From Candidatus Dependentiae bacterium Noda2021 (GTDB lineage: Bacteria; Babelota; Babeliae; Babelales; Vermiphilaceae), in contig AP025250.1 in NCBI GenBank assembly GCA_020886235.1, positions 1 through 64,000 of the forward strand: a stretch of DNA of 64,000 bases, written 5' to 3'. The notes below the pieces were generated by a model that was not told the DNA's origin, searched no databases, and saw nothing but the letters and a program-made list of their open reading frames with translations. Numbering within the stretch: position 1 is the first letter of the stretch; each line of letters starts with the position of its first letter. A program made the translations under genes and the position numbers. Shown piece by piece: positions 50,073 through 52,277 of the stretch.

Positions 50073-52277
50073 TTACATGTGTACCATAGTTACTTGTTCA
50101 GGTTGCGTTGTTAAACGTTTACCATGCTCTTGTAACCCCAAGGTTATGATACGATCAATGAACTCCATCGGCTTCATGCCTAATTCTGCAGCTTGGTGAA
50201 ATATGCAGGTAGCAGGAGTCATGCCGGGTAATGTATTGCATTCAATAAAAATAACACGTTGAGAGCCTGTAGGTGATTGATCAGGCGATTGATAAAAACA
50301 ATCAATGCGTGCATATCCTTTGCAGCCCAATGCCATGTAAATTTCTGCAATGGTAACTTTTACAAATTCTAATGCAGGTGTAGGAAGAGGTGCAGGTGTT
50401 TGATTTTCACCGGCTCCCGGCAAGAATTTTTCCTCAATTGACAATATCCCACCGGTTGAAACTGCTTGTGATGGTGGTAAAGCAAAAGGGGTATCGTTGC
50501 CCAGAACACCAACGGTTAATTCCATTCCCGTAATACATTCTTCAATGAGCGCAAATTCTTTTTGGGCAAAGAGTGTTTGTAACGCGTTTTCAAATTCACT
50601 CAGGGTATTAACTTTTTGAACTAACACTGAGCAGCCATCGTCATGGGGTTTTACAATGAGAGGCAATGAGAGGTCCGTGATGGTTTCCTCTGCGATAGAA
50701 GTATTATTAAGCCATTCTTTTTTGCTTAGTAATATACCTTTGGGAACACTAAAACCCTGATGTTTGAGAAACTGATTGGTTTTGTATTTGTTCATACACA
50801 ATGAGCTTGCAAGGACACCGGAGCCATTATAGGGTAGGCCGAGCATTTCAAGAGTTCCTTGGATCGCGCCGTTTTCACCAAGTCCTCCATGCAGACCAAT
50901 AAATACAAAATCTGCAATGCGTGGTAAATCAGTCCATGAAATATGCATAGATTCATCTAAAAAAGCTTCAATTTCATGCGTCGATGTTTTTACCAACAAT
51001 TGCTGGTTGATGCGATATAACTTCATATTGCTTGATACAAAAAGAGGAATAGATTCATACTTTGCAGGAGAAAGCTTGTAACTTATATTTCTACCTGACT
51101 CCAATGAAATTTCTTTTTCATTAGATGCGCCCCCGAGCAATACTGCAACTCTTTTTTTAGTAACATTCATGCTTTGCATTTCTCTTTTTTCTTCACGGAT
51201 TACTTTTTCTAACATCCCCTGTGCGTGCAACTCAGTTTCAATAAGATGATTTATCAATTGGCTGTGGCTCATGTTATTATGTGCCGCTTGGACAAATAAA
51301 AAGCTTGAAGGTGCCATACCAGAGAGTGAGTTTGGATCAAATATTACAATCTCATTGTTGTCGGTTAAAAAACCATCTATTCGTGCCATTGTTTGAAGTT
51401 CAAGTGTTTGCATGACGCGTACACAGGTAGATTGTATTAATTCAAGAGCTTCTTGAGAGCAACGAGCAGGGGTAAACTCTGTTGCGCGTCCCGGCATGTA
51501 TTTTTGCGCATAATCAAAATAATCTAATGTCTGATCGGCAACAATTTCGGTAGGGAGCAAAGGTACTAATGTGCCTGATTGATAATCAGTTAATACAATG
51601 CAAGAAAACTCCATTCCTTTTATTTTTTCTTCAATAAGAACGTGCTGATCATACAAATTACTTACTGTTGCTGCTTTGTAAAGTGCTGCACTAAGTTCGT
51701 CTAGCGTTTTTACTATCGTCACTCCGTAACTGGAGCCTTCGTGATACGGTTTAACTACTAATGGATATTTGAGATTATGACTTATGATTTTCTGATTAAT
51801 ACGTTCTATGTCGAGTGCCATGAGTTCATCTACCATGACAGTAAAACCACGTGGTGTGAGTATACCAGCAGCGCTCAGGAATTTTTTTTGCATGATTTTG
51901 TCCATGCTGAGCGAGCTGCCCAATAATTTTGCACCCAAATAAGGAATAGAAAATAATTCTAAAATCCCTTGAAGCGTGCCATCTTCTGCGTAGCTGCCGT
52001 GCATTGCAATATAGGCAAAATCAATGTAATGAGGTAATGTATCCCACTGTATGGCGGTTGCTTCTGTTGCAAGTCTATGCTCAAAATCACTTATTTTCCC
52101 GCGATGCAAAAAATGCTGAGGCAATATATACAAAAGACCTGTGTGTGTTTGAAAAATGGGCACAATCTCATAGCGGTTTGCATCAAGGTGATCGCAAACG
52201 GTTCTTCCTGAATTAAAAGAAACTTCTTTTTCAATTGATTTGCCACCCATGAGTACACCAACGCGTAGTTTTGCCAT
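50073..52277 (-). CDS. ddl: Tandem-fused D-alanine-D-alanine ligase (two Ddl units)
   Basis: A 734-residue protein made of two complete Ddl-type ATP-grasp enzymes, about residues 1-365 and 370-734. Each begins with the GG-S-E motif (VLMGGKSIEKEVS; VLLGGASNEKEIS), followed by HGSYAEDG or HGGLGENG, SLSMDK or SLCMNK, and the C-terminal metal site (DPNSLSGMAPSS or ECNTLPGMTPAT). The first half keeps KPYHEGSSYGV in the ATP loop, where the second reads KPHDDGCSVLV. The second keeps the better end motif. Ddl makes the D-Ala-D-Ala end of peptidoglycan stems. The fusion is unusual. GAGGAA lies upstream of the ATG. Confidence 0.93.
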   Translation of the reverse strand: MAKLRVGVLMGGKSIEKEVSFNSGRTVCDHLDANRYEIVPIFQTHTGLLYILPQHFLHRGKISDFEHRLATEATAIQWDTLPHYIDFAYIAMHGSYAEDGTLQGILELFSIPYLGAKLLGSSLSMDKIMQKKFLSAAGILTPRGFTVMVDELMALDIERINQKIISHNLKYPLVVKPYHEGSSYGVTIVKTLDELSAALYKAATVSNLYDQHVLIEEKIKGMEFSCIVLTDYQSGTLVPLLPTEIVADQTLDYFDYAQKYMPGRATEFTPARCSQEALELIQSTCVRVMQTLELQTMARIDGFLTDNNEIVIFDPNSLSGMAPSSFLFVQAAHNNMSHSQLINHLIETELHAQGMLEKVIREEKREMQSMNVTKKRVAVLLGGASNEKEISLESGRNISYKLSPAKYESIPLFVSSNMKLYRINQQLLVKTSTHEIEAFLDESMHISWTDLPRIADFVFIGLHGGLGENGAIQGTLEMLGLPYNGSGVLASSLCMNKYKTNQFLKHQGFSVPKGILLSKKEWLNNTSIAEETITDLSLPLIVKPHDDGCSVLVQKVNTLSEFENALQTLFAQKEFALIEECITGMELTVGVLGNDTPFALPPSQAVSTGGILSIEEKFLPGAGENQTPAPLPTPALEFVKVTIAEIYMALGCKGYARIDCFYQSPDQSPTGSQRVIFIECNTLPGMTPATCIFHQAAELGMKPMEFIDRIITLGLQEHGKRLTTQPEQVTMVHM

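What the first reader, a model, noticed from the sequence alone, without database searches (positions are those of the whole stretch)
50073..52277. Two D-Ala-D-Ala ligases fused head to tail
Ddl normally acts as a homodimer of separate chains. Here both units are on one chain and have drifted differently: the first has a weak end motif (DPNSLSGM), the second a changed ATP loop (DGCSVLV). They may have divided labour, or one may be structural. Changed specificity of one half (for example D-Ala-D-Lac or D-Ser) is possible.
Basis: partly seen in the sequence, partly recalled or inferred. Interest (0 to 1): 0.6.

Follow-up and report, generated by a model that had tools for sequence, protein, structure and literature searches.

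The report
Paired, unequal D-Ala-D-Ala ligase halves
An intracellular bacterium's only enzyme for the D-Ala-D-Ala cell-wall building block is two sister enzymes fused in one chain, each altered in a different part of its active site, and the same unequal pair recurs through its whole phylum and in a few other bacteria, sometimes as two separate genes.

Summary
In detail: one uninterrupted 734-aa frame (50073-52277, minus strand) encodes two complete Ddl units, the only Ddl in a 1.22-Mb Dependentiae (Babelota/TM6) genome. It is not a local oddity. The same A-B tandem is intact in 74 Dependentiae proteins and recurs in 71 mostly Bacteroidota loci and one Peregrinibacteria; the two types are separate genes in two Chloroflexota and two Dependentiae. 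One old duplication is likely. The changes are complementary and near-fixed (E. coli DdlB numbering): half A keeps S150, Y216 and R255 but has E270D and loses P275; half B keeps every ATP/Mg residue but has S150C, Y216F and (all but one) S281T. Sixty diverse canonical Ddls show none of these. Best reading: an obligate asymmetric (pseudo-)heterodimeric D-Ala-D-Ala ligase with divided labour, both halves under strong constraint. Phe216 marks D-Ala-D-Lac ligases in lactic acid bacteria, but this genome has no D-lactate dehydrogenase of the 2-hydroxyacid family, so D-Lac is not favoured. Tandem Ddl is already known in plants; whether plants carry this signature could not be tested. The mechanism is inferred; no half has been assayed.

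The parts
50073..52277 (-). tandem D-Ala-D-Ala ligase gene, 734 aa
   Evidence: only Ddl in the genome
51192..52277 (-). half A (residues 1-362): canonical substrate residues (S150=S182, Y216=Y260, S281=S325), altered Mg2+ motif
51315..51338 (-). half A motif DPNSLSGM: D314 replaces Glu270, S319 replaces Pro275 of DdlB
   Evidence: Asp in 75/77 Dependentiae and 70/71 Bacteroidota-type first halves
51156..51221 (-). inter-half segment (residues 353-374), modelled mostly as a helix (356-369); two Dependentiae relatives have a gene break at this boundary
50076..51155 (-). half B (residues 375-734): ATP/Mg residues all canonical, substrate triad altered
50619..50639 (-). half B serine loop DGCSVLV: C549 replaces Ser150
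   Evidence: Cys in 77/77 Dependentiae and 71/71 Bacteroidota-type second halves
50424..50426 (-). half B F618 replaces Tyr216 in the loop EEKFLPG
50208..50210 (-). half B T690 replaces Ser281

Best explanation
This is the organism's sole D-alanine:D-alanine ligase, built as an obligate asymmetric pair. An old duplication gave two Ddl subunits, A and B. In this family they occur together (fused A-B, or as two genes) and stand in for the ordinary homodimeric Ddl. The chain folds as two Ddl units that I take to form a pseudo-dimer. Half A keeps the D-Ala-recognition side (Glu15, Ser150, Tyr216, Arg255, mostly Ser281) but has a changed metal/phosphate side (E270D, Pro275 lost). Half B keeps the complete ATP/Mg2+ side but has a modified D-Ala-binding triad (S150C, Y216F, S281T). 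Shown by sequence: the pairing, the complementary residue changes, their fixation, and the sole-Ddl status. Inferred: that both halves bind ATP, that B carries the more robust ATP-driven step while A is either a second, slower dipeptide site or a D-Ala-responsive partner, and that the product used by MurF is D-Ala-D-Ala.
For: Sole Ddl in the genome alongside MurC, D, E, F and two alanine racemases. Tandem in 74 Dependentiae proteins, always A then B. Mean departures from DdlB: half A 1.07 of 8 ATP/Mg residues and 0.30 of 7 substrate residues; half B 0.00 and 3.30; Bacteroidota-type first halves 1.28 and 0.04, second halves 0.00 and 3.00; 60 canonical Ddls 0.10 and 0.00. Same signature in Bacteroidota, Peregrinibacteria and Chloroflexota. 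A and B are separate genes in two Chloroflexota (adjacent in G289, about 18 kb apart in G811) and two Dependentiae, so the pair, not the linker, is what is kept. In 15 searched genomes outside the phylum (14 with the tandem, 1 with the two-gene pair) no ordinary Ddl was listed at E <= 1e-6 besides the pair. Tree with signature columns removed: A-type one group, B-type one group (88% SH-aLRT), both together apart from canonical Ddl (100%). Confident whole-chain model, each half a Ddl fold. Half B is the more conserved half in 88.5% of Dependentiae pairs, so it is not decaying.
Against: No enzyme data. The residues kept are also compatible with both halves being ordinary, independently active ligases, with fusion only a convenience. 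That the two halves contact each other as in a Ddl homodimer was not checked: the model's coordinates could not be read. The A-with-B clade could partly reflect long-branch attraction (the stems are long). Lys144 is changed in some first halves (Arg in 19/71 Bacteroidota-type, Leu in G811), which would suit a catalytically dead A at least there.
Confidence: 0.6

Rival explanations
1. Half B is the catalyst and half A is a non-catalytic regulatory or stabilising partner that still binds D-Ala.
For: Half B never departs from the eight ATP/Mg residues in 144 proteins, whereas half A nearly always has E270D and sometimes lacks Lys144 or Asn272. Y216F is a known, crystallised DdlB variant (PDB 1iow).
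Against: Half A keeps Lys97, Lys144, Glu187, Lys215, Arg255 and Asp257 in 77/77 Dependentiae, which is hard to explain without ATP chemistry. Asp-x-Asn in place of Glu-x-Asn is used by an active ATP-grasp enzyme, ITPK1 (own knowledge, not tested here).
Confidence: 0.3
2. Half B is a changed-specificity ligase (D-Ala-D-Lac or another D-Ala-D-X) and half A makes D-Ala-D-Ala, so the chain is bifunctional.
For: Phe instead of Tyr at this position sets depsipeptide over dipeptide activity in lactic acid bacteria (PMC5996685), and the aligned Leuconostoc D-Ala:D-Lac ligase 1ehi has KF here too. Phe is invariant in half B (77/77) and Tyr invariant in half A.
Against: No D-lactate dehydrogenase of the 2-hydroxyacid family in the genome: the single PF02826 hit is phosphogluconate dehydrogenase. 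All Van-type NCBIfam models stay below their cut-offs. Half B also has Cys150, where 1ehi has GSSVG. Serine racemase models stay below cut-off for both racemases. D-Lac or another acceptor could still come from the host.
Confidence: 0.2
3. Ordinary Ddl dimer whose two equal subunits were fused by chance; the residue differences are neutral drift.
For: The halves share all of the ATP-grasp core; the dimer is a recurrent feature of Ddl (PMC6899670).
Against: The substitutions are fixed in distant phyla and never seen in 60 canonical Ddls, which drift does not give; the pair is kept even where unfused.
Confidence: 0.1

Closest known systems
[quoted passage not shown]
   Same: Both halves have the same two domains, fold and ATP-grasp core.
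   Different: Two unequal units per chain; S150C/Y216F/S281T in one, E270D and loss of P275 in the other; no canonical Ddl alongside.
Plant DDL, a fusion of two Ddl units found through the plant lineage (PMC9954125)
   Same: Head-to-tail fusion of two putative Ddl enzymes, function of each half unsettled.
   Different: Nuclear gene of plants, tied to chloroplast peptidoglycan; its residues at 150, 216, 270 and 281 could not be examined here, so shared descent is untested.
F-type Ddl of Leuconostoc and Lactobacillus (D-Ala-D-Lac ligase)
   Same: Phe in place of Tyr216, as in half B.
   Different: Single-unit enzyme; half B also has Cys150, and the organism has no recognised D-Lac source.
MurC-Ddl fusion (NCBIfam NF011171)
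   Same: Ddl fused to another wall enzyme (model; an 807-aa frame in G252 is probably one).
   Different: There the partner is MurC, not a second Ddl.
VanA/VanB/VanC/VanG ligases
   Same: Homologous ligases.
   Different: Different loop residues (VanA aligns Glu/Val at 215/216); family cut-offs not reached.

Membership tests
Ddl family (PF01820 + PF07478) | N-terminal and C-terminal Ddl domains above Pfam cut-off | tested here: met
   Two copies of each, 249 and 164 bits against cut-offs 24 and 34.6
Ddl family (PF01820 + PF07478) | ATP-grasp catalytic core (Lys97, Lys144, Glu180, Glu187, Lys215, Arg255, Asp257, Asn272) | tested here: met
   All present in both window halves
Ddl family (PF01820 + PF07478) | Glu15-Ser150-Tyr216 triad together with Glu270 in one unit | tested here: not met
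   Triad complete only in half A, Glu270 only in half B; for this reason I call it a diverged branch of the family, not a canonical Ddl
Ddl family (PF01820 + PF07478) | D-Ala-D-Ala ligase activity | not testable with these tools
   Needs an enzyme assay; indirect support is sole-Ddl status with MurF and Alr present
D-Ala-D-Lac ligase (Van types) | Curated NCBIfam model above cut-off | tested here: not met
   VanA 241 of 775, VanD 242 of 700, generic D_ala_D_lac 298 of 550 bits
D-Ala-D-Ser ligase (Van types) | Curated NCBIfam model above cut-off | tested here: not met
   VanG 371 of 495, generic D_ala_D_ser 312 of 520 bits
F-type D-Ala-D-Lac ligase of lactic acid bacteria | Phe at position 216 | tested here: met
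   Half B only, F618; rule from PMC5996685
F-type D-Ala-D-Lac ligase of lactic acid bacteria | own D-lactate supply (D-lactate dehydrogenase of the 2-hydroxyacid family) | tested here: not met
   Only PF02826 hit is phosphogluconate dehydrogenase
Plant tandem DDL | Two Ddl units fused head to tail | tested here: met
   plant architecture from PMC9954125
Plant tandem DDL | Common descent, shared A/B residue signature | not tested
   No plant sequences in the collections on hand

The most novel reading that the evidence does not exclude
A Ddl that works only as an A/B pair: two unequal active sites that are catalytically interdependent (one strong in substrate recognition, one strong in ATP/Mg chemistry), so that neither half alone is a competent ligase; an ancient heterodimeric branch of the Ddl family that replaced the homodimer in Dependentiae and parts of Bacteroidota and Chloroflexota.
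Probability: 0.3. Interest if true: 0.8.

Novelty: new variant of a known kind. Interest (0 to 1): 0.6.

Why it matters
Ddl is a textbook homodimer and a drug target (D-cycloserine). A natural branch in which the two sites have fixed, complementary changes, and which stands in for the ordinary enzyme across a phylum, gives a direct way to ask what each residue group does and whether Ddl subunits influence each other. Unfused natural versions exist, so the halves can be tested separately without engineering. As far as the held literature shows, it is also the first bacterial counterpart of the tandem Ddl of plants, whose two halves and origin are unexplained; comparing signatures could settle whether plants took theirs from this family.

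Tried and rejected
Assembly error or misread pair of genes: rejected, same fusion in 74 proteins of the phylum. Decay of one half: rejected, both constrained, B the more conserved. Dependentiae-only invention: I held this, then rejected it when the genome-contig scan found Bacteroidota, Peregrinibacteria and Chloroflexota members; one search used E <= 1e-20 and a truncated match list, so it could not have excluded divergent tandems. The Chloroflexota locus as misbinned Dependentiae: disfavoured by 60% GC and by a second Chloroflexota genome with the pair. An extra canonical Ddl in G289: rejected, L259 lacks the GG..E and HG..GED motifs. G201 as a B-type: rejected, it has GSS and KY. The weak third Ddl hit in the own genome (750843): an unrelated ATP-grasp protein. 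The 1338-aa frame in G066: a run of N. Viral contigs: no relative found. Literature searches for a described bacterial tandem or heterodimeric Ddl gave nothing relevant.

Full report
Observation. The frame at 50073-52277 on the minus strand is intact, 734 aa, and contains two complete Ddl units. Against E. coli DdlB numbering, DPNSLSGM puts Asp at 270 and Ser at 275 of the first unit, and DGCSVLV puts Cys at 150 of the second. The halves are 34% identical to each other and about 30% to canonical Ddls.

Genome and role. The window lies in a 1.22-Mb single-contig genome. Apart from the two halves, the only PF07478 hit is an unrelated ATP-grasp protein, so this is the sole Ddl. MurC, MurD, MurE and MurF and two adjacent alanine racemases are present; the only 2-hydroxyacid dehydrogenase hit is phosphogluconate dehydrogenase. 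A cultured Dependentiae, Chromulinavorax, is reported to have a complete mur pathway (PMC6561590), while Babela massiliensis is reported to have lost it (PMC4378268), which agrees with a few phylum genomes here having no Ddl.

Phylum-wide fusion. 89 of 101 phylum genomes have a Ddl C-domain match. From 80 fetched loci, 74 proteins including the window carry both units in one frame, always in the order A then B. Several others are cut by contig ends or gaps. Two genomes of different families (G098, G037) have a clean break at the boundary: a stop in A and a separate ATG for B, so two adjacent genes.

Complementary signatures. In 77 first halves and 77 second halves: A has Ser150 77/77, Tyr216 77/77, Arg255 77/77, but Asp at 270 in 75/77 and never Pro at 275. 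B has Glu270, Asn272, Pro275 and Thr278 77/77, but Cys150, Phe216 and Thr281 77/77. In 60 Ddls from diverse other bacteria, Ser150, Tyr216, Glu270, Pro275 and Ser281 are each 60/60. Counting eight ATP/Mg and seven substrate residues, half A departs at 1.07 and 0.30 positions on average, half B at 0.00 and 3.30. Residue roles are taken from established knowledge of DdlB, not tested here.

Outside the phylum. A genome-contig scan with the tandem profile found about 70 Bacteroidota (among them Hymenobacter, Pontibacter, Aureispira, Sporocytophaga) with tandems of roughly 900 aa, one Peregrinibacteria, and a Chloroflexota with two adjacent genes (only the best 80 loci are returned, so this is not a census; one of the tandem records is titled Sphingomonadales). 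All share the signature: first S/Y/D, second C/F/E, with one A at 270 among the first halves. In 15 such genomes searched, the pair is the only listed protein that resembles a true Ddl. A second Chloroflexota, G811, has A and B about 18 kb apart; its A has Leu at 144 and its B keeps Ser281. Evenly drawn samples give 4 of 296 Bacteroidota and 2 of 151 Chloroflexota genomes. Among the genomes of other phyla drawn the B-type profile reached E <= 1e-50 only once, in G201, which carries a canonical Ddl. So the family is rare outside Dependentiae.

Ancestry. A first tree places Dependentiae A and B as sister groups (100/99 support). With the other phyla added and the eight signature columns removed, A-type rows form one group and B-type rows another (88%), together apart from canonical Ddl (100%); this second tree is a quick search without bootstraps. 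The simplest account is one duplication, then fusion in Dependentiae, Bacteroidota and Peregrinibacteria, with transfer between phyla possible. Where the root lies, and how many fusions or splits occurred, is not settled.

How it probably works. A whole-chain model is confident (pLDDT 92, pTM 0.88) and each half matches Ddl structures. Unfused natural pairs show that co-occurrence, not the linker, is conserved. I infer a pseudo-heterodimer standing in for the Ddl homodimer, with both halves binding ATP in Dependentiae, B the robust ATP/Mg site and A the canonical D-Ala-recognition site. Whether A turns over, or B accepts another acceptor, is open. The Phe/Tyr rule (PMC5996685) would make B a depsipeptide ligase; the absence of a recognised D-lactate route argues against that here.

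Known and new. Tandem Ddl fusions are known in plants (PMC9954125), where the halves' roles are unsettled. I found no description of a bacterial tandem or paired Ddl in the held open-access library, which omits most subscription papers, so novelty is provisional. It is a new variant of Ddl rather than a new kind of system.

Noticed in passing
G000:C1:1150396-1151941 (L268, L269): Two adjacent alanine racemase genes in the window's genome; most phylum members with this domain have one, and 30 of 87 sampled have none.
   Followed up: partly
G017:C39:13536-16116: In one Dependentiae genome an alanine racemase lies next to the tandem Ddl gene.
   Followed up: no
window 57689-58948 (+): NamZ-like exo-beta-N-acetylmuramidase, a wall-recycling enzyme, about 5 kb from the Ddl gene.
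   Followed up: no
L259 (G289:C4:420428-421054): Chloroflexota Ddl-like ATP-grasp protein without the N-terminal GG..E and HG..GED motifs; function unclear.
   Followed up: no
G004, G034, G035, G096: Dependentiae genomes of at least 92% completeness without any Ddl match, possible losses of the wall.
   Followed up: no
L050 (G099) and L108 (G072): Tandem Ddl with extra stretches inside one half that break the match to the profile.
   Followed up: no
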